64,000 bases of DNA from Fibrobacter sp. UWB13 (lineage in GTDB: Bacteria; Fibrobacterota; Fibrobacteria; Fibrobacterales; Fibrobacteraceae): the NCBI RefSeq assembly GCF_900177805.1, contig NZ_FXAX01000001.1, positions 1,984,001-2,048,000 of the forward strand, written 5' to 3'. The translations under genes were made by a program, and so were the position numbers. The notes beneath the pieces are model-generated. The model was not told the origin of the DNA. It made no database searches and saw only the letters and a list, made by a program, of their open reading frames with translations. This document shows positions 20,230 through 49,615 of the stretch, piece after piece. Positions within the stretch are counted from its first letter, which is position 1, and the number at the start of each line of letters is the position of its first letter.

Positions 20230-22155
20230 CTATTTCACCGAAATTCGCAACATTTTTCCGTCCGTTTGAGGCTTTGCAATGTAGGTTCCAGGGCGCTTCA
20301 CCGTAGCTGAAATTTTTGAGCGCAAACTTTCGGAGCCGAACGCCTTCAATTTTGCAACAAGGCGACCTTGCATATCGAACACATCATAACTAGCCTCATG
20401 CAGAACAGCGTGCATCGCAGGCTTTCCAATCGCAATCGTCTTTTCGCTTTCAAAGTTCAGCCAGTCGATATTGACGTAGTTTCCGACAATTTCAAGCTTG
20501 AGCACATGCTCGCCCGCCGAAAGGCTCACCTTCCCGGCATCGACCGTCGAATAAGTTTCCCAGCCCGCGCCTTGCGGGAACGCGACATTGTCCAAGGCGA
20601 CCTTGCCATCGACATACAGCTTCATACCCGTATTTTCCGAAGAAGTCGCATAGCAGACTGAAACCGCGTAATCTTCTTTTTCAGCAACCTTCACAGTGTA
20701 CTCAAGCCATTCGCCCTCTTGCGTGTAACCAACGGCATAGCCATTGCCGGCCTTCACGATATCAACAGCGTCTTCGCGATATTCACCACCCTTGTTGTCA
20801 TCATCCAAATCAAGATAAGCCTTGCCCGAACCGCCTACATCGTAATTTTCGACTTCGACTTTACCAGGAATCTCCATAGCCGTATCCTTGTAAGGGGCTT
20901 GCGGAATAATCGGCGTGATATACACACGATAGCCATACTTTGTATTCGTGATATTTACAGGCACCGTAATCTTTCCGCCACTTACATCGTAATCCTTATT
21001 TGATACAGTCGTGGTCGAAGGCACTGCCTTGTCCTTATTTTCCCATACAACATATTCTACAGAGACATTTACCTGACTGCCAAATTCTGCAGGGATGCCC
21101 GAAATATTCACATTCACATCGCCCTTGGTGTTGCCGCCAAGCACGATACTTGCAAAGCCCTTCTTCTTGTCGAGAGCGGCAAAACCGTCCACGCCATCGC
21201 TCTTGTCGTTCGGCGGGGTCACTTTAGCCATGTAACCGCTCATGTCGCCATACCACTTATAAAGCCACCAGCCACCGCCACGTTCATTGTCCTTGGTGAG
21301 AAGGCTCCCCAAACGACCTGGAAGCGGTACAAACCACCAGGAAATCATTGCGCTTTCGACGCCGTGACGTTCAAACTTTGCAATAAACGGCACCGACAAA
21401 CCCGGACAACCTTCTTCGGAATGCTCCGTCGAAGAATATTCGTTGATGCTCAGCGGACGCGGAGTCACGTTATACTTTTTTTCAAGCGCGCGGTAGGTTT
21501 CGACAGCTCCAACAAAGCCACCACTCCCCCACTGGTGCCAGCTCACGACATCGGGCAAGCAGTTATTCTGTGCACAATACTTGATAAACGCTTCCATTTG
21601 CGAAGCGTGGTAGAAAGAGTACGAAGGGCCGATAATCTTTGCACCAGGGTCCATCTGCCGAATCAAATCGTAAGTCTGTTTCCAGAGACCGGAATTGAAG
21701 TCGATATTCGATTTCCAAGTGTCATTCGGCTCGTTCCAGATTTCGTAACCGTCAAAATTCTTGTTGTTTGATTTAAGCTTGTCGTTGATGACCGATTTTA
21801 CTTCATTTTTCCAGTGGTCCATATTCTGGAACTTGTACGGCCATCCCGGCAAAACGTCAGCAAGGCGAATCTGAATTTTCGCACCGATGCTTTCGACACG
21901 GGGTGCCACAAGGAAAGCCCCACCAATCGGCTGTTGGCGACCGTTACCGCTGCGCGCCGGAGAAAGGAACACGTTCGGCTTGAGCGGGGCGACATCACGC
22001 TCGATATTGCTCGGAAGACTCTCAGTAAGGCCATAAAGCGAGCCCGTCGCCACATGCGTCACCGGCTTGATGCTATCGCCAAGACTTACACCCAGATTCA
22101 CCGCGGCCTGAGAAGCAGAAACCGCCAAAAATAAAAAGAGAAATTTGTTTTTCAT
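20230..22155 (-). CDS. Secreted clan GH-A glycoside hydrolase with CBM6-like module
   Basis: 641 aa. Signal peptide 1-18. Catalytic barrel about 20-330: acid/base Glu in GYEIWNEPND (E142), nucleophile candidate in LSINEYSS (E239), plus VVSWHQWGSGG and a Trp-rich loop SWWFVPLPG. The overall pattern is closest to GH39-like clan A enzymes, but family assignment needs a profile search. About 335-425 is a beta-sandwich. About 428-555 is a CBM6/CBM35-type module (KVEVENYDVGG, GYTQEGEWLEYTVKV, LKLEIVGNYVNIDWLNF). The last 70 residues, with YDVFDMQGRLVAKLKAFG and a basic end, resemble the C-terminal sorting domains of Fibrobacter secreted enzymes. It likely attacks a plant cell-wall polysaccharide. 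Confidence 0.8.
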   Translation of the reverse strand: MKNKFLFLFLAVSASQAAVNLGVSLGDSIKPVTHVATGSLYGLTESLPSNIERDVAPLKPNVFLSPARSGNGRQQPIGGAFLVAPRVESIGAKIQIRLADVLPGWPYKFQNMDHWKNEVKSVINDKLKSNNKNFDGYEIWNEPNDTWKSNIDFNSGLWKQTYDLIRQMDPGAKIIGPSYSFYHASQMEAFIKYCAQNNCLPDVVSWHQWGSGGFVGAVETYRALEKKYNVTPRPLSINEYSSTEHSEEGCPGLSVPFIAKFERHGVESAMISWWFVPLPGRLGSLLTKDNERGGGWWLYKWYGDMSGYMAKVTPPNDKSDGVDGFAALDKKKGFASIVLGGNTKGDVNVNISGIPAEFGSQVNVSVEYVVWENKDKAVPSTTTVSNKDYDVSGGKITVPVNITNTKYGYRVYITPIIPQAPYKDTAMEIPGKVEVENYDVGGSGKAYLDLDDDNKGGEYREDAVDIVKAGNGYAVGYTQEGEWLEYTVKVAEKEDYAVSVCYATSSENTGMKLYVDGKVALDNVAFPQGAGWETYSTVDAGKVSLSAGEHVLKLEIVGNYVNIDWLNFESEKTIAIGKPAMHAVLHEASYDVFDMQGRLVAKLKAFGSESLRSKISATVKRPGTYIAKPQTDGKMLRISVK

Positions 22156-22175
22156 ACCACATCCTTTTTACCACA

Positions 22176-22205
22176 ATAAAAAATACCCCCATAAAGGGGG
22201 TATTT
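22176..22205 (-). terminator. Rho-independent terminator of the thioredoxin gene
   Basis: Minus strand: AAATACCCCC, TTTAT loop, GGGGGTATTTTTTATT. It lies between the thioredoxin gene stop and the glycoside hydrolase start. Confidence 0.9.
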
Positions 22206-22245
22206 CACAGCAATTTGAGCGTTTTTTATTGTCGGATTGACAAAA

Positions 22246-23028
22246 CTACTTGCAAGCAAAACCTTGCAATTCAAGCCCGGCCCGCATCTCGCCATAAGTC
22301 GAAGTGCGCTTCATGTCCATCGCCTTCATGAATCGGCAATCATTATCGATATGCATCTGGAACCCCGTCATCGTCGGGACCACCTCGCCCTTGCCACTTG
22401 CACGGATATGTTCCATCATCTGGTCGCGCCTGTCGAACTGTTCCGGTGGCACAAACACATCCGTCACGATATCGACATTTTCAATTTCTGAATCGCCGAA
22501 CACAAACGAAATCGTCACAAGATTCTTGAGTCCATTGAACTGGCCATCCACCTTGCAGACAAGATTCTTGTGCGCATTCTTCTTTTTCGATTTGTTCTTC
22601 GTCTTTTGCGCAGCACTTGGCTTTGGGGTGTAATCCAACGCGCTCAGAAGCTCCGGTTCCTTGACAACGCCCACGCGCTGGTTTATAATGCGACCATCCT
22701 TGATGAAAAAGAACGTCGGAAACGCCCGAATCGGGAGCGTATTCTTGATTTTCTCGATATTCGGTTCGTCAATCCCGATAGACGCAATCTTGATATCGCT
22801 GTAATTTTTCGCAATACCGATAAGCGTCGGAATCATGACAAGGCACGGCGGGCAGCTCGTCGACGAAACTTCCAGAATCACAGGCTTCTTGGATTGCAGA
22901 ATTTCCTTTTCGAAATTGTCATCGTTGATTTTAACGATTTTAATATCTTCGGACGCCCCCGCCGCAAGAACCGCAGACACAACAAAGATAGCAACCTTCA
23001 TCGCCAAATTTTTTCTTAAGCCGATCAT
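22246..23028 (-). CDS. Exported thioredoxin-fold protein
   Basis: 260 aa. The ATG at 23028 follows AAGGAAA; residues 1-26 form a signal peptide (two Lys/Arg, hydrophobic core, Ala-Gly-Ala). Thioredoxin fold about 28-130 with active site SSTSCPPCLVM (C59-x2-C62) and the cis-Pro in RAFPTFFFIKDG. A Lys/Ala-rich linker (about 137-155, KTKNKSKKKN) leads to a C-terminal domain (about 155-260) with Cys at DNDCRF and GFAC that I do not recognise. CPPC is less common than CGPC. A periplasmic thiol-disulfide role is likely. The substrate is unknown; the C-terminal domain may be the client-binding part. Confidence 0.75.
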   Translation of the reverse strand: MIGLRKNLAMKVAIFVVSAVLAAGASEDIKIVKINDDNFEKEILQSKKPVILEVSSTSCPPCLVMIPTLIGIAKNYSDIKIASIGIDEPNIEKIKNTLPIRAFPTFFFIKDGRIINQRVGVVKEPELLSALDYTPKPSAAQKTKNKSKKKNAHKNLVCKVDGQFNGLKNLVTISFVFGDSEIENVDIVTDVFVPPEQFDRRDQMMEHIRASGKGEVVPTMTGFQMHIDNDCRFMKAMDMKRTSTYGEMRAGLELQGFACK

Positions 23029-23061
23029 TTTCGTTTCCTTAATTTTTTATCGACAAGATAC

Positions 23062-23090
23062 AAAAAAGCCGACCCTGCGGCCGACTTTTC
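23062..23090 (-). terminator. Probable terminator of the small lipoprotein gene
   Basis: Minus strand: GCCG, six-base loop, CGGC, then TTTTTT; the stem is short, with an interrupted AA/TT extension. Confidence 0.5.
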
Positions 23091-23111
23091 CATCCATTCT
23101 AAGGATTTAGA

Positions 23112-23606
23112 TTACTTTGCGCAACCCGTGCCGAGAGTCCCCATCATCACACTCACACACTGGGCTTCTATCGCCGCCGCTTCTGCACTGCCTGCCGGAT
23201 ATTCAAGGCATTCGCCAAAGACACCCGGGACATCGCAAGAAACCATCGCGCCCGTTGCCGGAGTATCAGTAGTGGGCGTGCCTGTAGCAGGCGTATCAGT
23301 TGCAGGAGGATTCGTGGCCGGAGCTGCATTTTCGCAACCCGCCACAGGATTGCCCAAAGTCTGCATATCCCACTGAGCGCCATTGCATTGAGCCAATTCA
23401 GAATAACCCGTGACAGCGACAGTTGCGCACTTGTTCACAGTCTGGGAACAAGTGTAGTTGTTATCCAGATCAAAGAACTTATCAACACTCGCCGGGAGCG
23501 TATCCTGTTTCGGACCTGCAGCCGGAGCGTTTGGCGAACTATCGTCACTACAGGCTACAAAAGAAGCCATAGCAATGGCAGCAATAGGAAGAATCAATTT
23601 TCTCAT
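23112..23606 (-). CDS. Small lipoprotein with Thr/Pro/Ala-rich repeats
   Basis: 164 aa. Lipobox SFVAC at C19 followed by Ser-Asp-Asp-Ser-Ser; the Asp after Cys would suggest inner-membrane retention under the E. coli rule, but this rule need not hold in Fibrobacter. Mature part: a small Cys-containing region (NYTCSQTVNKCATVAV), then TDTPATGTPTTDTPATG repeats at about 95-118 and a C-terminal part with three more Cys. The Cys-pattern recalls the other Fibrobacter lipoproteins at the end of this window. Function unknown. Shine-Dalgarno AAGGAG precedes the ATG. Confidence 0.7.
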   Translation of the reverse strand: MRKLILPIAAIAMASFVACSDDSSPNAPAAGPKQDTLPASVDKFFDLDNNYTCSQTVNKCATVAVTGYSELAQCNGAQWDMQTLGNPVAGCENAAPATNPPATDTPATGTPTTDTPATGAMVSCDVPGVFGECLEYPAGSAEAAAIEAQCVSVMMGTLGTGCAK

Positions 23607-23905
23607 AATGTGTACTCCTTAAAATAATTGGTAGGGATAAACTACAAAAAATACAAACAAAAAAAACAACAGATAAAATATTGAATTTTTAATTATGGCA
23701 AATTCGCCATAATTAGCCTTGAGTATGTCAATTTGATCCTAAGAAATAGAGTTTATTTCAAAAATGTCAAAATACGTCATTTTTAATATATATATTTGAT
23801 ATTACAGAAAAATCTACCCTATTGCGCATTATATAGGAATAGGATATTTTAGAGAAGAACAAAAAAAGAATGTAATGCGTAAAAAAAATTGGACCAGGAG
23901 GAAGT
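23607..23905. other. AT-rich intergenic region before the defence island
   Basis: About 300 bp between divergent genes, visibly AT-rich. It holds a perfect 9-bp-arm inverted repeat at 23691-23714 and an AAAATG...CATTTT inverted repeat near 23760-23783. No ORF, tRNA or known RNA was seen. Promoters for both flanking genes must lie here. Confidence 0.6.
23691..23714. promoter_or_regulatory. Perfect inverted repeat, possible operator
   Basis: AATTATGGC-AAATTC-GCCATAATT. No U-run follows on either strand, so it is more like an operator than a terminator. It lies upstream of the defence operon and 85 bp upstream of the divergent lipoprotein gene. Confidence 0.4.
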
Positions 23906-25408
23906 ATGAAGGTCTTGCTAGATACAAACATCATCATTCACAGAGAAGCTAGTCATGTGGTTAACCAGGATATCGGCATTCTCTTCAAATGGCTAGATCG
24001 CACCCACTGCGAAAAAATCGTCCATTCTAAATCAATTGAAGAAATTCTCAAGAACAAAAACACTACAATCGTTGAGTCTTTCAAGGCAAAAATTCAGAAC
24101 TACGAAATTCTGCAAAATCCTTCACCTATGGCAGAAAAAGTCCTCGTCGTATCAAAAATGATGGACACAACCGAAAATGACTCCGTAGACACCATTTTGC
24201 TTAACGAAGTATTTTGCAATCGTGTAGACTTGCTGATCACCGAAGACAAAAAGATTCATACAAAAGCAGCCGCTCTAATTATTTCAGACAAGGTCTTCAA
24301 TATTGATCGATTTCTAGAAAAGATTTTCTCCGAAAATCCGGAATTGGTCAATTACAAAGTCTTGAATGTTCAAAAGGTTCCTTTTGGAAAGATTGATTTG
24401 AACGATCCATTCTTTCAGTCCTTAAAAAATGACTATGCGGGATTTGATAAATGGTTCCTGCGAAAATATGACGAGTCCGCTTATATCACCATCAATTCAA
24501 ACAACGGCAAGTTGCTCTCGTTCCTTTACGTTAAGAAAGAAGATGTATCAGAAAGCTACGCCGACATCACTCCACCATTGCCACCAAAGAAGCGTTTAAA
24601 GGTCGGTACATTCAAAGTTATCAGCAACGGCTTTAGACTTGGTGAAAGATTCTTAAAGATCATTTTCGACAACGCCTTGAAAAACAAGGTCGAAGAAATC
24701 TACGTAACGATTTTCGACAGGACCGACGAGCAGAAGCGGTTGATCGCCCTTATGGAAAAGTGGGGCTTTGTCTATTGGGGTAAGAAAGGTGACGAGAGCG
24801 TATATGTTCGCGATTTTAATCCGAATTTCGCTATAGACGATGTTTGCAAAACTTATCCCTATATTTCAAAAAATCGCGATACATTTATAGTTCCCATTTA
24901 TCCCGATTACCATACGGAACTGTTGCCAGACTCCATTTTAAACACGGAATCGCCGAGCGACTTTGTGGAGGATTCACCTCATCGGAACAGCATTTCGAAA
25001 GTGTATGTTTCGCGAGCCTATGAACCGCACCCCAAGATGGGGGACCTTCTTGTGTTCTATCGAACGGGAGGATTATACAAAAGCGTCATTACCACAATCG
25101 GTATTGTAACTGAAATTAAGGAAAATTTCAGCAATAAAGAAGAATTTGTTGTTTACTGTCGCAAGGGAAGCGTGTTCCCCGAGAAAGAACTCGAGAAAAT
25201 GTGGGATTATCGACCTCAAAGACCTTTTGTGGTGAGTTTTCTTTATGTATATTCTTTCCCAAATAGAATAAACATGAGCAAGTTGATTGACATGGGCATC
25301 TTTAACGGAGTCAATGACGCACCCCGCGGTTTTAGATTAATCTCTAAAAACCAGTTTGAATGCATTTTAAAGGAGACCGACAGTGAAGGCTGTTTTATTG
25401 TCGATTAA
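23906..25408 (+). CDS. PIN nuclease - GNAT - PUA/EVE-like three-domain protein
   Basis: 500 aa. Domain 1 (about 1-130) is a PIN nuclease fold: MKVLLDTNIII with Asp6, an acidic SIEEIL segment, DSVDTILLNEV and DLLITEDKKIH supply the usual acidic cluster. Domain 2 (about 180-305) looks like a GNAT acetyltransferase: LKVGTFKVISNGFRLGERFL, then the acetyl-CoA-binding-like helix and ALMEKWGFVYWGKK. Domain 3 (about 345-495) has the SKVYVSRAYEPHPKMGDLLVFYRTG layout of EVE/PUA-type domains that bind modified nucleic acid. Domain calls are by eye. It overlaps the ASCH gene by 26 bp and stands directly upstream of m5C methyltransferases and a McrB-like motor, suggesting a conflict/defence role. AGGAGGAA precedes the ATG. 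Confidence 0.65.
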   Translation: MKVLLDTNIIIHREASHVVNQDIGILFKWLDRTHCEKIVHSKSIEEILKNKNTTIVESFKAKIQNYEILQNPSPMAEKVLVVSKMMDTTENDSVDTILLNEVFCNRVDLLITEDKKIHTKAAALIISDKVFNIDRFLEKIFSENPELVNYKVLNVQKVPFGKIDLNDPFFQSLKNDYAGFDKWFLRKYDESAYITINSNNGKLLSFLYVKKEDVSESYADITPPLPPKKRLKVGTFKVISNGFRLGERFLKIIFDNALKNKVEEIYVTIFDRTDEQKRLIALMEKWGFVYWGKKGDESVYVRDFNPNFAIDDVCKTYPYISKNRDTFIVPIYPDYHTELLPDSILNTESPSDFVEDSPHRNSISKVYVSRAYEPHPKMGDLLVFYRTGGLYKSVITTIGIVTEIKENFSNKEEFVVYCRKGSVFPEKELEKMWDYRPQRPFVVSFLYVYSFPNRINMSKLIDMGIFNGVNDAPRGFRLISKNQFECILKETDSEGCFIVD

Positions 25409-25760
25409 ACCGGAATTCGCTCATAAGATTTTTGAGGGCTCAAAAAAATATGAGTTCCGCAAGCAGGTCTTCAAGGATAAGTCCGTAAAGAAGGTCATCG
25501 TGTATTCCTCGTCACCGGAACAAAAGGTTATCGGAGAATTTGAAATCGAGACCATCCTAGGTGACTCGCCTGATAAAATTTGGATTCAAACAAGACTGTA
25601 TTCAGGGATTTCGCAGGAGATCTTCAAGAGTTATTTTGAAGGACGGGACAAGGCCTATGCGATCAAAGTGGCCTCGACCAAAAGATACTCCAAGCACAAA
25701 TCCCTAGCGGATTTTAACATTCATACTGCACCACAATCTTTTGCGTACGTGAATGTGTGA
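25383..25760 (+). CDS. ASCH domain protein
   Basis: 125 aa. The start MKAVLLSIKPEFAHKIFEGS followed by KKYEFRK is the ASCH signature (SIKP..A..I..G.K..E.R). ASCH is a PUA-like nucleic-acid-binding fold. The GTG start at 25383 has AAGGAG upstream and lies inside the end of the PIN-GNAT gene, so both are co-translated. Likely RNA- or modified-DNA-binding partner of the preceding protein; this is inference. The following methyltransferase gene starts 65 bp after its stop, so the three may share a transcript. Confidence 0.8.
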   Translation: MKAVLLSIKPEFAHKIFEGSKKYEFRKQVFKDKSVKKVIVYSSSPEQKVIGEFEIETILGDSPDKIWIQTRLYSGISQEIFKSYFEGRDKAYAIKVASTKRYSKHKSLADFNIHTAPQSFAYVNV

Positions 25761-25825: not shown

Positions 25826-26989
25826 ATGAATTTTTCTGCGCTTTCTCTTTTTGCTAGTGCTGGTGTAGCTGAGACATATTTCGAAGATCATGGGGTTCAT
25901 ATAAAGGTCGCTTCAGAGTTGCTTCCACAAAGAGCTCGTTTTCATGAACATTTATATCCAGACGCAAAAATGTTTCAAGGCGATATTACGGATGAAACAG
26001 TTTATTCTGAAGTAATAAATGCAGCCAAGAAAGCAAAATGCGATTTTATTCTTGCGACTCCCCCATGTCAAGGAATGAGTACTGCAGGACTGCAAAAAAA
26101 AGATGATCCTCGTAACCGCCTTATATTGAGTGTTCTGCGGGCAATAAATGACCTTAAGCCCAAATATGTTATGATAGAAAACGTGCCTGAACTTTTACAA
26201 ACATCTATTTATATAGATGGCGAATGGAAATCCATAAACAACTATATCCATGAACAACTAGATGCTAATTATTTTTTTAATGAAAAAAAAGTTGTTAACG
26301 CGATGTACTATGGAGTACCCCAATCAAGAGAACGTTGCGTTTATCTATTGTCAAGAAAATCTACAAGAATCCATTGGGAATTTCCTAAACCGGCAACTCA
26401 AGTATGCACAATGAGAGATGCAATTGGAAACCTTCCTTCACTGGATCCGAATGTGACTGACATATCTGAGGAAGAACGAAAAAAGCTTTTTCCCCACTAT
26501 TATGAAAAAGAGGCTGCTGGACTTAAAGTGTCAAAATGGCATTATCCACCCAAGCATAAACTCCGCCATGTCATAGCAATGATGCATACACCAGAAGGGC
26601 ACTCTGCTTGGGAAAACAAAAAATTTTATCCAACTTTGAAAGACGGCCGAAAATCAAAAGGATACAAAAATACATATAAACGGCAATGGTGGGATAAACC
26701 AGCTTATACAATAACAATGTTCACAAGTCGATTAGGCTCCCAAGAAAATGGTCATCCAGGACATCCTATAACAGAATCAGATGATGAAAATGAAAGAATT
26801 TGGTCGGATGCTAGAACAATGTCCATTCTCGAGTTAATGCGATTGTCTTCGCTGCCAGATAATTGGAATATCCCAGAGTGGGCCAGTAGTAATGTGATTA
26901 GGGAAATTATCGGAGAAGGAGTTCCTCCAAGATTATTGGAGGCAGCACTTATCTCATTGGAGAATTTGATTGGTGAAAGAGATGCTTAA
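25826..26989 (+). CDS. DNA (cytosine-5) methyltransferase, LlaJI-type M1
   Basis: 387 aa from the ATG at 25826 with AAAGGA upstream; the open frame extends to 25757 but those codons lack a good start. C5-methyltransferase motifs: I SLFASAGVAE (variant of FxGxG), IV with the catalytic Cys TPPCQGMS (C81), VI MIENVPEL, VIII QSRERCVYL, and IX/X at the end (REIIGEGVPP). It methylates cytosine-5 in one strand of the target. It is clearly paralogous, end to end, to the next gene. Two m5C enzymes are the arrangement of LlaJI systems with an asymmetric site. AT-rich, unlike the genes before 23606. Confidence 0.9.
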   Translation: MNFSALSLFASAGVAETYFEDHGVHIKVASELLPQRARFHEHLYPDAKMFQGDITDETVYSEVINAAKKAKCDFILATPPCQGMSTAGLQKKDDPRNRLILSVLRAINDLKPKYVMIENVPELLQTSIYIDGEWKSINNYIHEQLDANYFFNEKKVVNAMYYGVPQSRERCVYLLSRKSTRIHWEFPKPATQVCTMRDAIGNLPSLDPNVTDISEEERKKLFPHYYEKEAAGLKVSKWHYPPKHKLRHVIAMMHTPEGHSAWENKKFYPTLKDGRKSKGYKNTYKRQWWDKPAYTITMFTSRLGSQENGHPGHPITESDDENERIWSDARTMSILELMRLSSLPDNWNIPEWASSNVIREIIGEGVPPRLLEAALISLENLIGERDA

Positions 26990-28142
26990 ATTTAAGGAAC
27001 CCCTTAAAGCATTGTCGCTTTTTTGTAATGTCGGAATAGCAGAAAGCTATTTTAAGGAGATAGGCGTAGACGTAAAAGTAGCGAATGAATTACTTCCTGA
27101 AAGAGCAAAATTTTATAGTCATTTGTATCCAGACGTCAACATGATTAATGGGGACATTACAGATCATAATATATTCCAAAAAGTGATATCGGCAGCCAAA
27201 AGATCCAAAGTAGATTTTGTTATGGCAACACCTCCTTGTCAGGGAATGTCTTGCGCTGGCCGAAAAGACCCTAAAGACCCGAGAAATATCTTGGTCTATT
27301 ATGCCATTGAGGCTATAAAAATAATTAAGCCTAAGTTTGCACTAATCGAAAATGTACCAATGCAACAGCATACGAAAATAAACTATAAGGGGAAGGATGT
27401 TTTCATACCAGAATATGTTGAAGCAGAATTAGGAGATTCCTATACTTTTAATACAGAACGTGTTGTAAACGCGGCTGATTTTGGAGTTCCGCAATCCCGG
27501 AAAAGATACATTTATCTTATGGCTAGAAAAGATCAGAATCTAATATGGAACTTTCCGAAAAAGGAAAAGCACCAAATAACAGCACAGGAGGCTATAGGTC
27601 ACTTGCCATCATTAGATCCTCTACTTAGAGAAGAGTCGGAACGTTGGAGATTCCCAGACTATGAAAAAAAGAAAAAAGCAGGATTGAAAATTTCAAAATG
27701 GCATTATGCAACAAAACAAAGTTGGAAACTTGTTGAGCTCATGATGCATACACCTTCGGGCAAGTCAGCTTTTCTTAATGACCATTTTTTCCCCAAAAAA
27801 AATGGTCGCCGAGTAAAGGGAGCTCCAAGAACCTATATGCGAATGTTTTGGGATAAACCAGCAACAACGATTATGCAAAATAGCGATGTCATTTCAGCTT
27901 TTATAAATGTTCATCCAGGAAGAGTTGTTGTTGATAGTGATGATGATCGAGAAAGGATTTATTCCGATGCGAGAACATTAAGTATTTATGAGTTGATAAT
28001 TCTTTCGTCTTTACCAACGAATTGGAACATTCCTGAATGGGCTGATGAAAAATTAATCCGCCAGGTTATCGGTGAAGGAATTCCACCCTTGCTGATAAAA
28101 AAGGCAATCGAATCATTAATAAAGGAGTACCAGTCATGTTAG
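26982..28142 (+). CDS. DNA (cytosine-5) methyltransferase, LlaJI-type M2
   Basis: 386 aa from the ATG at 26982 which overlaps the M1 stop by 8 bp. Motifs: I LSLFCNVGIAESYF, IV ATPPCQGMSCAG (C86), VI LIENVPMQ, VIII QSRKRYIYLMA, X RQVIGEGIPP. The two methyltransferases keep the same insert pattern (KISKWHYATK / KVSKWHYPPK, then a WDKPA segment), showing an old duplication, but differ in the target-recognition region (about 200-330), consistent with one enzyme per strand of a non-palindromic site. The target sequence cannot be predicted from this. Confidence 0.9.
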   Translation: MLKFKEPLKALSLFCNVGIAESYFKEIGVDVKVANELLPERAKFYSHLYPDVNMINGDITDHNIFQKVISAAKRSKVDFVMATPPCQGMSCAGRKDPKDPRNILVYYAIEAIKIIKPKFALIENVPMQQHTKINYKGKDVFIPEYVEAELGDSYTFNTERVVNAADFGVPQSRKRYIYLMARKDQNLIWNFPKKEKHQITAQEAIGHLPSLDPLLREESERWRFPDYEKKKKAGLKISKWHYATKQSWKLVELMMHTPSGKSAFLNDHFFPKKNGRRVKGAPRTYMRMFWDKPATTIMQNSDVISAFINVHPGRVVVDSDDDRERIYSDARTLSIYELIILSSLPTNWNIPEWADEKLIRQVIGEGIPPLLIKKAIESLIKEYQSC

Positions 28143-29386
28143 GAAATATAACCATTGACAAATCAAGCATGGTGCTTAATTATTTCTTGCACACCATCCA
28201 TCTAATAAAGAAAAATGGAGGAAAACTAGAACGAACCAGATTTGAACGAGAAATGGCTCATTTTGTGGGAGTATCTGTTTACAATGATGATGGAACAACA
28301 AATAGGACTCCGTACAACAAATCTAAATTTCCTCGTTACTTTGGTTTTGTTGAAAGTGTAGATGTGGGCGGTCAGGAATTCTTATATTTGACGGGACGAG
28401 GAATAGAACTGAGTTCGATTATTGGGGAAAGAGCTCTTTCGGATGGATCTACAGAGTATTATATTACTAATAGAAATTATTTTATAACATTAATATTTTA
28501 TAGTCTTTGGTTTGACACCTTTGGAAAAAACAATTGCGGAGCGGAGCAATCATGCACAGATATTGAGCCACCCAAAATAGTGTTTAGAGCGTTACAAGAA
28601 CTAGGAAAAGCGTCTGCAGAAGAAATATATTATGTTATATATGGATTAAATGGTTTTCCCAAGCAGAAAAAACAACCAATTCATTCTTCTTTTGAAGACG
28701 CTATTGAAAAGGTTAAAGAAAAAAGGAACAACCGCTATGATTATAAAAATTGGATTCGGTCATGGAATCTAAAGAATCTTGTTAGCGATTGCAAAATCAT
28801 AAACATCTTTACCGAAAAAGGATTCGGTCTTTTATCTTCTAATGAAAATAAAAACGGAGATATAGAATATTCTCTATCTAGTAATTTAAAACAAGAACAT
28901 TTAGAATTCATCCATAAACTAAATCCATATTATAAACCTTTATTCTTTATTCAGGATTCGGACAATTCAAAAGATTACGTTCAGGAATGGCTAAAGTATT
29001 CTGTTTACGGTAAGTTTTGTTCAAATAGAAACATATTCCATATTCATACAAAAAATATTATCAAATCAATTTTGAACGACAAAAACTTTGTTCAAGCACT
29101 AAAGGCTGCCTACATCAATCCCAAAGAATCTTTTTATTTAGAATTTGACACTGCTGATTACAATGAAATCATCGATTGTTTTGCAGACAATGCGACGTTA
29201 CTAGATCGCATAGATGATGTAATGGATGATTTTAATGGCTGGTCTAGTGTTGGAGTTCATAGTATTTCTTTATATAGTGAAATCGTTGCATTAGCAAAGA
29301 AATCCTATAACGGGCACAACATCAAAGAAATCTTAAGCCCAAACACAATTCGACTTCCGGCAAATCTTAATATCATAGGAGTGTAA
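28136..29386 (+). CDS. Unknown protein inside the LlaJI-like operon
   Basis: 416 aa, not recognised. No signal peptide or membrane helix. N-terminal third contains a possible winged-helix-like part (ERTRFEREMAHFVGVSVYND) and a segment PYNKSKFPRYFGFVE that weakly recalls the N-terminus of AlwI-type nucleases; the rest is charged and Lys/Asn-rich. The ATG overlaps the M2 stop by 7 bp and follows AAGGAG, so it is translated with the R-M genes. Its position just before a McrB-like ATPase that begins almost directly with its AAA+ core suggests that it may supply DNA recognition to the motor, as the N-terminal domain of LlaJI R1 does; this is a hypothesis only. A nuclease or an accessory role remain possible. 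Confidence 0.55.
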   Translation: MLGNITIDKSSMVLNYFLHTIHLIKKNGGKLERTRFEREMAHFVGVSVYNDDGTTNRTPYNKSKFPRYFGFVESVDVGGQEFLYLTGRGIELSSIIGERALSDGSTEYYITNRNYFITLIFYSLWFDTFGKNNCGAEQSCTDIEPPKIVFRALQELGKASAEEIYYVIYGLNGFPKQKKQPIHSSFEDAIEKVKEKRNNRYDYKNWIRSWNLKNLVSDCKIINIFTEKGFGLLSSNENKNGDIEYSLSSNLKQEHLEFIHKLNPYYKPLFFIQDSDNSKDYVQEWLKYSVYGKFCSNRNIFHIHTKNIIKSILNDKNFVQALKAAYINPKESFYLEFDTADYNEIIDCFADNATLLDRIDDVMDDFNGWSSVGVHSISLYSEIVALAKKSYNGHNIKEILSPNTIRLPANLNIIGV

Positions 29387-29390
29387 TAAC

Positions 29391-30743
29391 ATGCCTCTAG
29401 ACATCACCGTTGGCCATTTAAACATGCCAAACCAAACAAACATTCCTACAAAAAAAAACATATCAGAAAGAAAAGACTTGTTGTCCTTCTCACCAACCCA
29501 AATCATCTACTATGGTGTTCCCGGCAGCGGAAAAAGCCATACAGTCGATGACGAAATCAACAAGAAACTAAGTAAATATAACGAAAGAAAAACAGAGGAC
29601 AACAAGATTACGTATGACAATCAGGTAACCCGTGTAGTCTTCCATCCTGATTACGGAAATGCGGATTTTATTGGGCAAATAATGCCGAAAATCCGAGAAG
29701 GTCATGGAGTAGATTATGTGTTCAAGCCAGGTCCATTCTCGCAGATTTTGCGAAAAGCATATCTTAATTCAGACAAACCCTATTTCCTTATTATAGAAGA
29801 AATCAACCGAGGAAACGCGGCCGCTATTTTTGGCGAAATGATCCAGCTGTTGGATCGAATTAAAGAGAACAAAGATAAAAGTGGATATAGTACAGGTTGG
29901 AGTTCCTACTCTATATGGAATGATGATGTTAATGACTATATCCGAGATATCAATGCTTATAACAAATTTGAGCATAGCGGTTGTGTAAAAGTCAACCATC
30001 CTAAAGATATGCTAGATGGCAACGGAAATCCAGCTGACTCTCCTGATGAGAACGGCAAAAAAGAAATCGATTTTTCTTCAGCGACTTCTTACAGTTCACT
30101 AGAATTAATTCTCCAGGGATTTGATTATAAGCAAACATTCCGGGAATCTACAGCAATTCGCCTCCCGCCTAACCTCTCTATCTACGCAACAATGAACACT
30201 AGCGACCAGAATGTGTTTACGCTTGATAATGCGTTCCAGCGTCGTTGGGAAATGAAACAAATATCTAACGATTTGGCCCATGATGATTCCACCGCAGACA
30301 CAACAAAACAGTATGATCAAATCATCGGCGATACAAATGTCAAATGGGGAGAATTCCGCGAAGTAATAAATGAAATAATCATGCAGTCTGCCGAAGAAAA
30401 TGGTTTATCCAGTATGGAGGACAAACGCCTTGGCGGGTGGTTTATCACACCCAAGAAACTCGATGATAATGAAAATTCAAAGGCTGTTATCACAAAAAAT
30501 GCTTTTGCAGAAAAGGTTCTCAAATACCTCTGGGATGACGCATTTAAGTTTGACCGAAAAGCGCATTTTGGCAATGTGAAAACACTTGAAAAACTTATTG
30601 AAAACTTTGATACAAAAGGCTTCAATATTTTCGCTGATACAGATATAAAAAAACTGCAGGAGATAGCTTCGACTAAGACCAACAATGATGGTTCTATAAA
30701 TAATTCGACAAGTACCCCCACACAGAATGACAACAACGGATAA
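29391..30743 (+). CDS. McrB-like AAA+ restriction motor (LlaJI R1-type)
   Basis: 450 aa. Walker A GVPGSGKS (42-49), Walker B/McrB signature FLIIEEINRGNAAAIFGEM (from 132), sensor region YATMNTSDQNVFTLDNAFQRRW (about 265-286). These are the McrB GTPase-type AAA+ motifs. Only about 30 residues precede the core, so the N-terminal DNA-binding domain found in McrB and LlaJI R1 is absent. An insertion with Asp/Asn/Gly (about 160-235) divides the core. The C-terminal tail is Asn/Thr/Ser-rich. It is expected to form the nucleotide-driven ring that loads the nuclease encoded next. AGGAG lies upstream of the ATG; its last 17 bp overlap the nuclease gene. Confidence 0.88.
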   Translation: MPLDITVGHLNMPNQTNIPTKKNISERKDLLSFSPTQIIYYGVPGSGKSHTVDDEINKKLSKYNERKTEDNKITYDNQVTRVVFHPDYGNADFIGQIMPKIREGHGVDYVFKPGPFSQILRKAYLNSDKPYFLIIEEINRGNAAAIFGEMIQLLDRIKENKDKSGYSTGWSSYSIWNDDVNDYIRDINAYNKFEHSGCVKVNHPKDMLDGNGNPADSPDENGKKEIDFSSATSYSSLELILQGFDYKQTFRESTAIRLPPNLSIYATMNTSDQNVFTLDNAFQRRWEMKQISNDLAHDDSTADTTKQYDQIIGDTNVKWGEFREVINEIIMQSAEENGLSSMEDKRLGGWFITPKKLDDNENSKAVITKNAFAEKVLKYLWDDAFKFDRKAHFGNVKTLEKLIENFDTKGFNIFADTDIKKLQEIASTKTNNDGSINNSTSTPTQNDNNG

Positions 30744-32025
30744 ATACATTCCTCAACAGGAACGCCCGAAACTTAGCGAAGTTTGCGTCTATGGAGGCAA
30801 ACAAAGCGATGAGTTCGCTGGGATCCGTTATGAAAACGGATCGTTAAAGGTGTATTTTCCTTTTGGTTATTCTAAGCCAATAGATGACGAAAAAGAATAT
30901 CGCAAGGATATATTGAATCTTATTTCAGTTCTTGCAGCCTATTCCAAAGAAAGTAAAAGTGTTGACCAGAATCGTCAATTAAACGAAGACGAAGTTCAAT
31001 TTCCGATTCATGCTTACCTTCATGTTTTCAATTATTTCCTAAACTTTGGTTACTACATTGAAAACGAGATGACATACAAAAGGGCTTCGAGTGGGAAAAT
31101 TAATTGGCCAAGAACGATCAAACAGATTCGCCCCAAAATTGCGGGCGAGCGTCCAAACGAATCGGTTGTTTATCTCGATTTCATAACAAAAAGGTCGAGC
31201 AACAACGAAAATGAAATCATAACGCAAATTCATCAATATTGTGTTTATGAGAGCTACGAGAAAGTCGGATGCTTGTTCGGGTATTTCCGACCAAAAAAGC
31301 CAACCATTCCCTTTAATGCAAAGATGTTCGCCGCCATTTTGAAAAATAAGATTTCAAGAACATTCAACGAAAAGCACATCCTACTTTTTAGAAATATGCT
31401 TGACATCGTTTGTTACATGGGCAAACGGAATGACAATCGAAAAGCAAGTTTCGGCACTAATGATTTTGAATATGTTTGGGAAGGCCTGATTGATGATGTT
31501 TTTGGTGTCAAAAAAAGTGAAAAAGAAAAATATTATCCGCATTGTGCTTGGCATATCAGTGATAAAGATAGCGATGCAGAATGGAACGAAACAAAAAGAA
31601 CGGCATTACGCCCCGACACAATAATGTTATCCGCAAACAATGATGCAAAAATTTTTGTTCTCGACGCGAAATACTATCAATATGGGGAAAATCGCGAGTC
31701 CAAGAGATTACCCGGAACAGGTTCAATCATTAAGCAAATCGCTTACGCAGAATTTATAGAAGCAATGCGCCAACAGAAACCGAAGATTGCCCAAGGCGAT
31801 ATCTACAACGCATTCATCCTACCTTACGCAACAACATTTAGCGAATCAAAATATCCAATGGAAAATTTCGGATATGCAGATTGCAATTGGAAAAATACAG
31901 AAGCAAAAACATACCATAAAATCTATGGAATATTGCTAGATGTCCGATCCATCATGCATCGTCACCCGAATCATTCCGACAAAGACATAGCCGAACTCGC
32001 CGCAAGAATTGAAGGCAGAATTTAA
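30727..32025 (+). CDS. LlaJI-family restriction nuclease (McrC-like, R2-type)
   Basis: 432 aa. The C-terminal half has a PD-(D/E)xK site: ALRPDTIML (D297), then IFVLDAKYYQ (D313-x-K315), preceded by YVWEGLIDDVFG, the helix with a possible acidic residue. The layout of a large N-terminal part, then WE..IDD.., then RPD, then DAKYY, is that of LlaJI-type (PF09563) and McrC-like nucleases that need a McrB-like partner. The gene is coupled to R1 by a 17-bp overlap. It would cleave DNA lacking M1/M2 methylation at the site. The first copy of the repeated leader element starts 17 bp after its stop. Confidence 0.82.
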   Translation: MTTTDKYIPQQERPKLSEVCVYGGKQSDEFAGIRYENGSLKVYFPFGYSKPIDDEKEYRKDILNLISVLAAYSKESKSVDQNRQLNEDEVQFPIHAYLHVFNYFLNFGYYIENEMTYKRASSGKINWPRTIKQIRPKIAGERPNESVVYLDFITKRSSNNENEIITQIHQYCVYESYEKVGCLFGYFRPKKPTIPFNAKMFAAILKNKISRTFNEKHILLFRNMLDIVCYMGKRNDNRKASFGTNDFEYVWEGLIDDVFGVKKSEKEKYYPHCAWHISDKDSDAEWNETKRTALRPDTIMLSANNDAKIFVLDAKYYQYGENRESKRLPGTGSIIKQIAYAEFIEAMRQQKPKIAQGDIYNAFILPYATTFSESKYPMENFGYADCNWKNTEAKTYHKIYGILLDVRSIMHRHPNHSDKDIAELAARIEGRI

Positions 32026-32041
32026 TACACTAATTCCGTTA

Positions 32042-32207
32042 TGTAAAATTTTCTTACTCCCCTAGCCAGACTTTTCGATATTAGGTACATTAATGCAGCA
32101 CGTGATTCTCTGTCAAATGGAGAATCGCGTCTTTTTTTATTCCGAAAATTCTGAATAAGGGGACGCCTCTAACATCAAACGGTCACAAATGGTGACCACT
32201 CGGAGGC
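32042..32207 (+). repeat. Structured intergenic repeat, copy 1 (before toxin-antitoxin)
   Basis: It starts TGTAAAATTTTCTTACTCCC and ends at GGAGGC. Parts in order: a hairpin ACGTGATTCTC / GAGAATCGCGT followed by CTTTTTTT (32098-32138), which looks like a terminator for the R-M operon; a second inverted repeat TTATTC / GAATAA; then GGGGACGCCTC...GGAGGC, where GCCTC can pair with the Shine-Dalgarno GGAGG; inside that is GGTCAC-AAAT-GGTGACC. Copies 2 and 3 are at 32920-33065 and 34603-34727. Confidence 0.85.
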
Positions 32208-32221
32208 AAAAAGCACCTATC

Positions 32222-32542
32222 ATGAATGAAAATATTGACAACTTGTCAAAATTTGATTACATTATAAAAAGATACACGGTCAGAATAACACATAAGGCTT
32301 TAAAGAACCTTGATAAAATGCCCAAGCCAGAACAGGAAAAGTTCTTCCGTTTGAAAACGGCTTTGGAAACAAGAGGTCCTGAACAGCCCTCGTTTATGAA
32401 TTATTCTAAACTCGGTATGAACATGTATCATTGCCATTTGTCAAGAAAATGGGTTGCATGTTGGAAAAATGAATCGGGAACTTTAACTATAGAGGTCTAC
32501 TATGTTGGCAGTCGTGAAAGCGCCCCCTACGCACGGCACTAA
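32222..32542 (+). CDS. RelE/ParE-family toxin
   Basis: 106 aa from the ATG at 32222 (the frame also has an ATG at 32189 within the repeated leader). The IIKRYTVRITHKALKNLDKM start, the basic PKPEQEKFFRLKTAL helix and the C-terminal KWVACWKNESGTLTIEVYYV strand are the RelE/ParE toxin layout; the family cleaves ribosome-bound mRNA or poisons gyrase. The GGAGG of the leader is about 15 nt upstream of this ATG, which is far, and it can be masked by GCCTC pairing, so expression may be low. It overlaps the antitoxin gene by 41 bp; toxin-first order is typical of HigBA-type pairs. Confidence 0.82.
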   Translation: MNENIDNLSKFDYIIKRYTVRITHKALKNLDKMPKPEQEKFFRLKTALETRGPEQPSFMNYSKLGMNMYHCHLSRKWVACWKNESGTLTIEVYYVGSRESAPYARH

Positions 32543-32918
32543 GAAGCCGGTATCCTTCAAGATCGAAGGAGAACAGATTCCCGACTTCGTTTTGGGGATG
32601 CTCAAGTACATGTTTCCGAAATGTGTCAAGATTTATGAAACGCCGCTCAAAAAACGTCATGATATGGATGAGGAATCGGTTGTGCTCGAAAGTACCGATT
32701 GGAACAAGAGAATGTCCGCGGAAATGACACCAGGCAAGGCCATCCGTGCCGACCGTGGGCTTCGCGGATGGACGCAGAATGTTCTCGCGCAAAAACTCGG
32801 CATCTCTATACAGAACCTTTCTGCGATGGAACATGACCGTCGTCCGATATCCAAGAAAATGGCCGCAAAGCTGTCTCTAATTTTCGACGTTCCACCCGAA
32901 ACATATTTCAAGTTCTGA
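32502..32918 (+). CDS. HigA-like antitoxin with XRE helix-turn-helix
   Basis: 138 aa. The C-terminal half is a Cro/C1-type helix-turn-helix: GKAIRADRGLRGWTQNVLAQKLGISIQNLSAMEHDRRPISKK; split here as start GKAIRADRGLRGWTQNVLAQ and recognition part KLGISIQNLSAMEHDRR. The N-terminal about 70 residues should bind the toxin. It is translated from within the toxin gene end (41-bp overlap). Antitoxins of this type also repress their own promoter. The second repeat copy follows 2 bp after the stop codon. Confidence 0.85.
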   Translation: MLAVVKAPPTHGTKKPVSFKIEGEQIPDFVLGMLKYMFPKCVKIYETPLKKRHDMDEESVVLESTDWNKRMSAEMTPGKAIRADRGLRGWTQNVLAQKLGISIQNLSAMEHDRRPISKKMAAKLSLIFDVPPETYFKF

Positions 32919-32919
32919 C

Positions 32920-33065
32920 TGTAAAATTTTCTTACTCCCCTAGCCAACATTTTCGATATTAGGTACATTAATGCAGCACGTGATTTTCTGTCAAATGGAG
33001 AATCGCGTTTTTTTTTATTCCGTGATTTTGGAATAAGGGGACGCCTTCAACTAATCAAAGGAGGC
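32920..33065 (+). repeat. Structured intergenic repeat, copy 2 (before AlbA_2 protein)
   Basis: Nearly identical to copy 1 for its first 120 bp (TGTAAAATTTTCTTACTCCC start; CGATATTAGGTACATTAATG core; terminator-like hairpin and T9 run; TTATTCC / GGAATAA; GGGGACGCC). Its 3' part is shorter: GCCTTCAACTAATCAAAGGAGGC, which keeps the GCCT/AGGC pairing but lacks the inner GGTCAC hairpin. Confidence 0.85.
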
Positions 33066-33068
33066 GCA

Positions 33069-34607
33069 ACGGCTCTATCTAATATCGACATCGCTACAAT
33101 TCTTTCAATGGAAGAATCGCAGACTTTTGACCGCAAAAGCATTAATATTGCTCCGCGTGATTTTTCCAACCATGTCTGCGCATTCGCCAATGCCGATGGC
33201 GGCATTATCGTAGTCGGCATTTCGGACAAGACCAAACGCATAGAAGGCGTTGATTCTCGGGAACGCCAAGTAAATGAGCTGTTGCGAGTACCAATGGACT
33301 TCTGCACGCCAACGGTTCCATTCGTTCATGAATTTGTGGATTGTGTAGATTCAAACGGCAAGGCAAACCATGTTCTTGTTTTCCATATAGAAGCGAGTCC
33401 GCTTGTCCACGAGAACCAGGCGCATGACGCCTATATACGGATTGGAGACAAATCAAAAATTCTTTCTTACGAGGACCGCATGACGCTTAGCCTAGACAAA
33501 GGATTGCGCTCGTTTGAAGATATTTTGGTTCCAGATTCAAGTTACGACGATATTGATGAAGTTTACCTCAAGGAGTATCTGCAAATGGTAGGATACTCAA
33601 GAAGCCCTCGGGAGTATCTATTGCAAAACAAGAACTTTGCCAAGGAGAAGGCCGGCGAAATACGGCTAAGCGTTGCAGCTATATTACTATTCGGAAAGAA
33701 TCCGCAGCAGTTCTTTCCTCGCGCTCGTGTACGCTTTATCCGCTATGAGGGTACCGAGGAAAAATTTGGAACTGAGATGAATGTCATCAAGGACGTAATC
33801 TTTGAGGGGCGAATTCTTGAACAGATTCGGCAGGCTGTTGCCTATATTCAGACGCAAATCAAGGAACGTACGTATTTGACCAAGGGCGGAATTTTTACCA
33901 CAGAACTTGAGTATCCTGAATTTGTACGTACAGAACTAGTTGTCAATGCGGTAACACATAGGGATTACTCTATTCGCGGAACAGAAATTCAAATCAAGAT
34001 GTTCGATGATCACTTGGTTGTCGAGTCACCAGGCAATTTGCCGAGTCAAGTAAAAATTGACAAGATTAGGAATGCACATTTTGCACGAAATTCACACATA
34101 GCGGAGTACCTGAAAGATTACAAGTATGTTAAAGATTTTGGAGAAGGCGTTGACCGAATTTATCGAGAAATGGAGGCGTCAGGTTTACCTGTGCCTGAAT
34201 ACCGTCAAGATTCATTCATTTTGAAGGTCATTGTCAAAAATTCAGGTTTTGCCCTTCAGAAAACGGGATTTGAGTCCGAAAAAACGGGATTCACCCTTCA
34301 AAAAACGGGAATTGAATCTGAAAAAACGGGATTTGCTCTCCAAAAAATGGAAATCGCATCTATTGTATTAAATTCAGGTTTTGGGAAGACAATAAAAGAA
34401 AAAATGAAAAAAATCATTGATGAAATAGACGAAAATCAAGTAATTGCAGCAAAGGATATTATGAAAATTTTAGCGTGTAAGCCAACAGCCGCAACAGAGA
34501 TGATTAAACGAATGCGTTCGCTGAATCTTTTGAAGAAAATAGAAGGAGTAGGACCAGGTCGTTATTCCTTAAATTTTCTCTCAATAACCACACCGAAGGA
34601 CTTGTAA
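33069..34607 (+). CDS. AlbA_2 / HATPase_c_4-type ATP-binding protein
   Basis: 499 aa if started at the ATG 33108, 512 aa if the in-frame ACG at 33069 is used. The ACG stands 4 nt after a GGAGG exactly where copy 3 of the same leader has its ATG, and the 13 extra codons (ALSNIDIATILS) complete the family's usual N-terminus before E.Q.F..K; so a mutated or non-standard start is likely. Domains: AlbA_2/Schlafen-like (about 1-125; FANADGGIIVVGI), then a GHKL-like ATPase part (about 245-370; ELVVNAVTHRDYS, GNLPSQ, KDFGEGVDRIY). A linker of five 7-residue repeats (34248-34352) leads to a winged-helix end. Such COG2865 proteins are usually regulators or defence-associated; function unknown. Confidence 0.75.
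   Translation, partial: TALSNIDIATILSMEESQTFDRKSINIAPRDFSNHVCAFANADGGIIVVGISDKTKRIEGVDSRERQVNELLRVPMDFCTPTVPFVHEFVDCVDSNGKANHVLVFHIEASPLVHENQAHDAYIRIGDKSKILSYEDRMTLSLDKGLRSFEDILVPDSSYDDIDEVYLKEYLQMVGYSRSPREYLLQNKNFAKEKAGEIRLSVAAILLFGKNPQQFFPRARVRFIRYEGTEEKFGTEMNVIKDVIFEGRILEQIRQAVAYIQTQIKERTYLTKGGIFTTELEYPEFVRTELVVNAVTHRDYSIRGTEIQIKMFDDHLVVESPGNLPSQVKIDKIRNAHFARNSHIAEYLKDYKYVKDFGEGVDRIYREMEASGLPVPEYRQDSFILKVIVKNSGFALQKTGFESEKTGFTLQKTGIESEKTGFALQKMEIASIVLNSGFGKTIKEKMKKIIDEIDENQVIAAKDIMKILACKPTAATEMIKRMRSLNLLKKIEGVGPGRYSLNFLSITTPKDL
34248..34352 (+). repeat. Five 21-bp in-frame tandem repeats
   Basis: Units encode FALQKTG, FESEKTG, FTLQKTG, IESEKTG, FALQKME, so two alternating heptad types. 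They lie in the linker between the ATPase-like and winged-helix parts of the AlbA_2 protein. Near-identical AAAACGGGA cores point to slippage-made copy number. Confidence 0.8.
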
Positions 34608-34727
34608 AATTTTCTTACTCCCATGGCGCAAGCGCCAAATGGAGAATCGCGTTTTTTTATTCCGTGATTTTGGAATAAGGGGACGCCTCTAACATCAACC
34701 GGTCGCAAATTGTGACCACATGGAGGC
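34603..34727 (+). repeat. Structured intergenic repeat, copy 3 (before small gene)
   Basis: Same ends as copies 1 and 2, but the first hairpin is replaced: after TTACTCCC comes ATGGCGCAAGCGCCA (perfect GGCGC/GCGCC stem) and then the common AAATGGAGAATCGCG-T7. The 3' part matches copy 1 (CTCTAACATCAA, CGGTCGC...GTGACC, GGAGGC). The repeat begins inside the AlbA_2 stop codon region. Confidence 0.85.
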
Positions 34728-40025: not shown

Positions 40026-40188
40026 CTATTAAACATTAGAAAAACCTCAAAAAAAAAAGATTTATCAAAGAAATCATAAGACAAAGCGAGAGTATATTAT
40101 AAGGAAATAAAAAAAATGTAAAACGTAAACAGTGAAATTTTCTACTTTTACGATCTCAATTGAGAATTGACCTATTGGAATTTTGCAC

Positions 40189-41307: not shown

Positions 41308-41310
41308 TGA

Positions 41311-42375: not shown

Positions 42376-42402
42376 AAATTCACTTTTTGCAAAGGATCTA
42401 AC

Positions 42403-44465: not shown

Positions 44466-44466
44466 T

Positions 44467-45738: not shown

Positions 45739-45743
45739 CTCAA

Positions 45744-49613: not shown

Positions 49614-49615
49614 TA

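What the first reader, a model, noticed from the sequence alone, without database searches (positions are those of the whole stretch)
25826..32025. LlaJI-like restriction-modification operon with an extra subunit and a motor without its own DNA-binding domain
Seen: two paralogous m5C methyltransferases (PPCQG), a 416-aa unknown, a McrB-type AAA+ protein whose Walker A begins at residue 42, and a PD-(D/E)xK nuclease, all overlapping or closely spaced. Known: LlaJI uses M1, M2, an R1 motor with N-terminal DNA-binding domain, and the R2 nuclease, at an asymmetric site. Inference: here the recognition part is detached, giving a four-part restriction complex. The operon is AT-rich and probably acquired.
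Basis: partly seen in the sequence, partly recalled or inferred. Interest (0 to 1): 0.7.

Follow-up and report, generated by a model that had tools for sequence, protein, structure and literature searches.

The report
Restriction system with detached recognition subunit
A rumen-type bacterium carries a DNA-cutting defence system whose target-reading part is a separate protein that still ends in a dead copy of the motor domain, which suggests how such recognition parts are swapped between different cutting machines.

Summary
The five genes are real and intact: two m5C methyltransferases, a 416-aa protein (S416), a motor-only McrB-type AAA+ protein and a PF09563 (LlaJI) nuclease. Motor-only R1 proteins in three-gene restriction cassettes are already known from BsuMI and LlaI (PMC1459862), so the split is not new in kind. 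New is the second half of S416: a truncated AAA+ fold without Walker A or B (hhalign 97.5% to the R1 motor; predicted fold matches YdiS/McrB). All four relatives that reach this region have it: two fused before an active LlaJI-type motor, one before a McrB/PF10117 pair, one split off before another AAA+ and a DUF2357-PDDEXK_7 nuclease. The operon is a chimera: methyltransferases and S416 resemble Firmicutes/Bacteroidales genes, motor and nuclease local Fibrobacterota genes. Best reading: a McrBC-type Type II system in which a dead AAA+ domain docks an exchangeable recognition cassette onto a GTPase ring. Docking and target site are untested; the LlaJI operator test does not support GACGC here.

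The parts
25826..26989 (+). M1, m5C DNA methyltransferase (387 aa)
   Evidence: PF00145 2e-44; closest by eye to M1.LlaJI in a four-way alignment; 610-654 bits to M1 of L096, L097, L098, L099 and L135
26970..28142 (+). M2, m5C DNA methyltransferase (390 aa), paralogue of M1
   Evidence: PF00145 1.6e-41; 54% identical to M2 of pNP40 LlaJI; 67-71% to M2 of L096, L097, L098, L099, L135
28136..28885 (+). S416 residues 1-250: DNA-recognition part, homologous to the LlaJI.R1 N-terminal domain; predicted winged-helix fold like N.BspD6I/FokI recognition domains
   Evidence: BLASTP 1e-10; hhalign 99.5%, E 2.9e-23 over 195 columns; VIA Z 12.2 to N.BspD6I, 219 aligned, rmsd 3.9
28886..29386 (+). S416 residues 251-416: degenerate, truncated McrB-type AAA+ domain without Walker A or Walker B, ending at the sensor-1 strand
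   Evidence: hmmsearch 18.1 bits, best of the scored shuffles 7.1; hhalign 97.5% vs 0.1-0.2% controls; domain-alone model: best match YdiS, Z 8.8, then E. coli and T. gammatolerans McrB
29391..30743 (+). Motor: McrB-type AAA+ protein without a DNA-binding domain (450 aa; Walker A starts at residue 42)
   Evidence: AAA_5 1.6e-6; PADLOC PDLC03547 4.6e-68, profile positions in the C-terminal part; 35% identical to LlaJI.R1 motor
30727..32025 (+). R2: LlaJI-family PD-(D/E)xK nuclease (432 aa)
   Evidence: PF09563 4e-33; 36.3% identical to R2.LlaJI on pNP40
23906..25760 (+). Adjacent candidate defence pair PDC-M11A (500 aa) and PDC-M11B (125 aa, ASCH-like); companion, not shown to be part of the system
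   Evidence: PADLOC 7e-216 and 1e-48; directly upstream of an m5C methyltransferase in 4 of the 13 loci with a full-length match

Best explanation
This is a McrBC-type Type II restriction-modification system of the LlaJI/BsuMI kind with the recognition part on its own polypeptide. M1 and M2 methylate the two strands of a short, probably asymmetric site. S416 reads the unmethylated site with an N-terminal winged-helix domain of the LlaJI.R1 type. Its C-terminal dead AAA+ domain docks onto, or into, the hexameric GTPase ring made by the motor-only protein. The ring then pulls DNA and activates the R2 nuclease, as in McrBC. Shown here: gene content, intact catalytic motifs in the methyltransferases, motor and nuclease, homology of both halves of S416, loss of the AAA+ motifs in S416 and all four relatives that reach that region, fused and split relatives, and the chimeric origin of the operon. 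Inferred: docking through the dead domain, GTP-driven translocation, nuclease activation, restriction of unmethylated DNA and the asymmetry of the site.
For: Families. S416 N-terminus = LlaJI.R1 N-terminus: 1.9e-6; tblastn to pNP40 and related plasmids, E 3e-4 to 5e-4. Dead AAA+ half; structure (YdiS top in both Foldseek runs, probability 0.99 and 1.00). Fused relatives: L097 811 aa and L135 808 aa carry S416 residues 1-415 upstream of an active AAA+ (Walker A at 488 and 470), and a second, weaker S416 match falls on that active AAA+ (also 2.5e-9 and 2e-5). L099 is fused to another McrB-type motor followed by PF10117; L096 is split before an AAA+ and a DUF2357-PDDEXK_7 nuclease. Mosaic: M1-M2-S416 5' part 66-69% nucleotide identity to L097/L096/L098/L099/L135, motor and R2 71-89% to Fibrobacterota L055/L049/L046. 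Two stop codons, a GGAG overlapping the S416 end and an ATG 4 bases on suggest coupled translation (sequence).
Against: No activity or complex was tested. Foldseek E-values for S416 stay above 0.001 (0.019 whole, 0.003 domain alone), and the models are moderate (pLDDT 71.9 and 71.3) from only 6 and 5 sequences. Most of the first 46 residues of the domain model are under pLDDT 50. S416 stops earlier than the fused relatives: the arginine-finger-like stretch (FRRCL in L097/L135) is missing, so the domain could be a remnant rather than a working dock. The S416 recognition part is rare: 1 of 167 Fibrobacterota genomes, 1 of 395 and 1 of 391 genomes in two other classes, each being the genome of a locus already in hand, plus one weak hit to residues 2-201.
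Confidence: 0.72

Rival explanations
1. The C-terminal part of S416 is an evolutionary leftover: a fused two-AAA+ R1 broke when the cassette recombined onto a local motor, and only residues 1-250 matter; the rest is decaying.
For: S416 ends at the sensor-1 strand, before the arginine-finger-like stretch kept in L097 and L135. The junction is where the mosaic changes partner.
Against: L096 shows a second split, at almost the same point and with a different motor. In the fused relatives the same domain is already dead but kept beside an intact motor. The window ORF is open throughout and still folds in prediction.
Confidence: 0.2
2. The operon is a chimera that no longer restricts: the methyltransferases act alone and S416, motor and R2 do not form a matched complex.
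For: The cassette and the motor/nuclease have different nearest relatives; no other locus fetched has this exact combination.
Against: All catalytic motifs are intact and the reading frames are tightly packed. The same kind of cassette is found with three motor/nuclease pairs.
Confidence: 0.12
3. A modification-dependent (Type IV, McrBC-like) system that cuts methylated DNA and merely sits beside two methyltransferases.
For: Motor and nuclease belong to the McrBC superfamily.
Against: The methyltransferase pair travels with S416-like proteins in all six loci that hold one (window), and S416 is homologous to the LlaJI.R1 N-terminus, whose protein is the specificity subunit of a system that restricts unmethylated DNA (PMC1459862 abstract and Discussion).
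Confidence: 0.04

Closest known systems
LlaJI (Lactococcus plasmid pNP40; L093)
   Same: Two m5C methyltransferases (M2 54% identical), LlaJI-family R2 (36%), McrB-type motor (35%), homologous N-terminal DNA-binding part
   Different: LlaJI.R1 is one 585-aa chain with Walker A at 271 and no room for a second AAA+ domain; its conserved operator (two GACGC sites 13 bp apart) is absent here
BsuMI (B. subtilis) and LlaI: three-gene restriction cassettes
   Same: Motor-only McrB-type protein (343 and 337 aa) in a three-ORF restriction cassette (PMC1459862, section read); the BsuMI motor YdiS (gene name recalled) is the best structural match to the S416 C-terminus
   Different: Whether their extra subunit resembles S416 or carries a dead AAA+ domain was not tested; the sequences were not obtained
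Fused two-AAA+ R1 of Longibaculum muris (L097) and Lachnospiraceae 526-35 (L135)
   Same: Whole of S416 matches the first part of the fused R1 (269 and 266 bits); same methyltransferase pair
   Different: One chain instead of two; dead domain continues through an arginine-finger-like stretch; distant motor and R2
PcaI (MTase + AAA+ GTPase + DUF2357 nuclease)
   Same: A McrBC-like enzyme used as a conventional restriction-modification system (PMC8989522, passages read)
   Different: One methyltransferase, CCNGG site, two restriction proteins
McrBC (E. coli, T. gammatolerans)
   Same: GTPase ring plus PD-(D/E)xK nuclease; E. coli also makes a motor-only McrB short form (PMC12707154, passage read)
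   Different: Recognises modified DNA, has no cognate methyltransferase

Membership tests
LlaJI system | Two m5C methyltransferases of the M1/M2.LlaJI type | tested here: met
LlaJI system | R2 nuclease of PF09563 with PD-(D/E)xK | tested here: met
   motif read from the translation
LlaJI system | R1: DNA-binding N-terminus and McrB-type GTPase in one chain | tested here: not met
   The parts are on two genes
LlaJI system | Recognises GACGC/GCGTC | tested here: inconclusive
   Indirect test only: 11 of 48 methyltransferase-pair loci have two GACGC sites 13 bp apart before M1; the window has one site and L096, L097, L098, L099 and L135 none. The site itself needs an experiment.
BsuMI/LlaI-type split cassette | Three restriction genes with a motor-only McrB-type protein | tested here: met
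   definition from PMC1459862
BsuMI/LlaI-type split cassette | Extra subunit homologous to the extra subunit of BsuMI or LlaI | not tested
McrBC Type IV | No cognate methyltransferase | tested here: not met
   Two methyltransferases in the operon
McrBC Type IV | Cuts modified DNA | not testable with these tools
   Needs a cleavage or restriction assay
AAA+ domain in S416 | McrB-type AAA+ fold | tested here: met
AAA+ domain in S416 | Walker A and Walker B | tested here: not met
   Absent in all 5 sequences that reach the region (alignment A4)

The most novel reading that the evidence does not exclude
A dead AAA+ domain acts as a general plug: it lets one recognition cassette (two methyltransferases plus the reader protein) dock onto at least three different McrBC-type motor/nuclease machines, either fused or as a free subunit that joins or stacks on the GTPase ring.
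Probability: 0.4. Interest if true: 0.68.

Novelty: new variant of a known kind. Interest (0 to 1): 0.5.

Why it matters
McrBC-type enzymes read very different targets with the same motor, and how their recognition parts are exchanged is open. That gives a concrete, testable idea for how the parts fit together: delete or swap the dead domain. It also suggests that the recognition domain of Lactococcus LlaJI is a winged-helix type rather than the B3 type known from the H. pylori homologue.

Tried and rejected
S416 as an unknown extra subunit: rejected, both halves have relatives. A recent frameshift splitting one gene: rejected, the motor frame is open only 4 codons upstream of its ATG. GACGC as the target: not supported by the operator test; GACGC is neither rare nor frequent in the window (115 sites, 114.6 expected). 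A shared new operator motif in the S416 group: no k-mer stood out. Dead AAA+ domain in other long R1 proteins: of 21 R1 proteins with Walker A at 331 or later, only L097, L135 and L099 match it. Close relatives of S416 in viral contigs: none with S416 alone; one with the family alignment, whose ORF lengths copy the L097 region. Plasmids: only the LlaJI-type hits; phages: none. PDB by sequence: nothing for S416 or R2; the recognition-domain profile gave only SlyA at E 0.29, not significant. PDC-M11 as a fixed part of the system: not supported; 4 of 13 full-length loci are directly followed by an m5C methyltransferase, a fifth after one gene. Literature searches. None of the listings names a dead AAA+ domain in a McrB-type specificity protein; 'degenerate AAA' and 'pseudo-AAA' occur in none of the ten papers listed (of 18 found). 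Most subscription papers are not held. The authors of PMC11090510 announce a separate paper on methyltransferase-linked McrBC systems (passage), which I have not seen.
Full report
What is there. The window lies in a 3.8-Mb genome (G000). ORF listing and Pfam/PADLOC scans confirm five tightly packed genes at 25826-32025: M1, M2, S416, a 450-aa McrB-type motor and an R2 nuclease of PF09563. M1, M2, motor and R2 carry intact catalytic motifs (read from the translations). The stretch is AT-rich (35-39% GC against 48-50% on the left).

The recognition part is detached. M2 is 54% identical to M2 of LlaJI on pNP40 (L093). S416 residues 1-172 match the N-terminus of LlaJI.R1 by PADLOC profile (1.9e-6), by tblastn in 72,556 plasmid records, where the only 5 records hit were Lactococcus, and by BLASTP (1e-10). 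Profile against profile the match is 99.5%, E 2.9e-23, over 195 columns. The motor aligns only to the AAA+ part of LlaJI.R1. A model of S416 (pLDDT 71.9, pTM 0.70) places residues 1-290 on the nicking subunit N.BspD6I (Z 12.2, 219 residues, rmsd 3.9) and, lower, on FokI (Z 9.3); small winged-helix regulators lie at Z 8-10. Foldseek itself gave no E-value under 0.001.

The second half of S416 is a dead motor domain. A profile of AAA+ parts from Fibrobacterota R1 proteins plus the window motor scores S416 residues 317-413 at 18.1 bits; the best of 1569 scored shuffles (2000 made) was 7.1. Profile against profile: 97.5% and 97.8% (S416 or L097 as master), while four control pairings gave 0.1-0.2%. 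Folded alone, residues 248-416 match YdiS, the BsuMI motor, best (Z 8.8), then E. coli McrB (5.5) and T. gammatolerans McrB (5.2); Z values near 5 are weak by themselves. Walker A and B are missing in all five sequences that reach the region.

Relatives. One scan of 84,980 species genomes with the M2 pair gave 77 loci. Six S416-type proteins are now known here: the window, L096, L097, L098 (cut by its contig end), L099 and L135; L173 from the viral collection has the ORF lengths of L097. In L097 and L135 all of S416 is fused in front of an active LlaJI-type motor and followed by a PF09563-type nuclease (R2 hits of 255 and 248 bits). In L099 it is fused to another McrB-type motor followed by PF10117. 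In L096 it is split, as in the window, and followed by a different AAA+ and a DUF2357-PDDEXK_7 nuclease. All six have both methyltransferases. So the cassette M1-M2-reader is seen with three motor/nuclease kinds and in split and fused form.

Mosaic origin. blastn gives: 22001-23691 shared with L038 and L046 (95-96%), the flank of a common site; 23758-25760 (PDC-M11) 90% to L038; 25841-28654 at 66-69% to L096, L097, L098, L099 and L135 from other phyla; 29497-32211 at 71% to L055, 30149-32211 at 83% to L049, 30755-32211 at 89% to L046, all Fibrobacterota. LlaJI-family nucleases are common in this phylum (58 of 167 genomes). I fetched the 60 strongest places other than the window's own; the weaker rows were left out. 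Of these 60, four have a motor with Walker A within the first 75 residues: L055 (cut by its contig start), L069, L074, L089; several other loci have motors cut by contig ends. L074 has the window's gene order with a different 239-aa protein. The S416 recognition part itself occurs in 1 of 167 Fibrobacterota genomes; the nine other genomes matched only the AAA+ stretch.

Target site. In 11 of 48 loci with a methyltransferase pair (the window and LlaJI included), two GACGC sites lie 13 bp apart before the first methyltransferase, within GGCGTCAAA...TTGACGCC or a one-letter variant. The window has a single GACGC there (background probability 0.19), and L096, L097, L098, L099 and L135 none. The site may therefore differ from GACGC.

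What is known. PMC1459862 (abstract, Background, Results part on sequence, Discussion and legends read) describes LlaJI and already notes motor-only proteins and three-ORF cassettes in LlaI and BsuMI. PMC8989522 (passages) describes a McrBC-like Type II system. PMC11090510 (passages) notes a methyltransferase-linked branch of McrBC. PMC7680126 and PMC12707154 (passages) report a B3 recognition domain for H. pylori LlaJI and, in the review, for LlaJI in general. Hosford 2018 and Ohshima 2002 were not held; anything of them beyond these passages is recalled.

Verdict. The dead AAA+ domain and its appearance with three kinds of back end are, as far as my searches go, not described; they make this a new variant with a clear test.

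Noticed in passing
23906-25760: PADLOC candidate pair PDC-M11A/B directly upstream. I read a PIN-like start (MKVLLDTNII) from the letters; Pfam gave only sub-threshold EVE (0.095) and ASCH (0.0016). It is in 21 of 167 Fibrobacterota genomes at E<=0.001, some weak or partial, and directly before an m5C methyltransferase in 4 of 13 full-length loci.
   Followed up: partly
32030-32185, 32920-33059, 34636-34727: A repeat of up to about 150 bp bounds the nuclease end, a small toxin-antitoxin-like pair (32189-32918) and an AlbA/Schlafen-type gene (33108-34607). The genome has 6 matches, and copies lie in restriction loci L034, L036, L046, L049 and L083. Could mark cassette boundaries.
   Followed up: partly
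L093, L115, L117, L118, L121, L122, L123, L125, L130, L131, L133, upstream of M1: A conserved operator GGCGTCAAA...TTGACGCC with two GACGC sites 13 bp apart precedes LlaJI-type methyltransferase pairs in 11 of 48 loci.
   Followed up: yes
L093 5214-5963: The review PMC12707154 attributes a B3 domain to LlaJI, but the Lactococcus LlaJI.R1 N-terminus is homologous to S416, whose model is winged-helix like. The H. pylori structure may not represent it.
   Followed up: partly
22001-23691 flank; L038, L046: The same left flank (95-96% identical) is found beside different restriction systems in two other Fibrobacterota genomes: a likely defence hotspot.
   Followed up: partly
L097, L098 and L099, upstream of M1: The DNA just upstream of M1 appears to encode the end of a small Cro/C1-type helix-turn-helix protein, perhaps a controller; judged by eye from the sequence.
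   Followed up: no
40183-50740: A second AT-rich run of nine consecutive same-strand ORFs of 300-515 aa, not examined.
   Followed up: no
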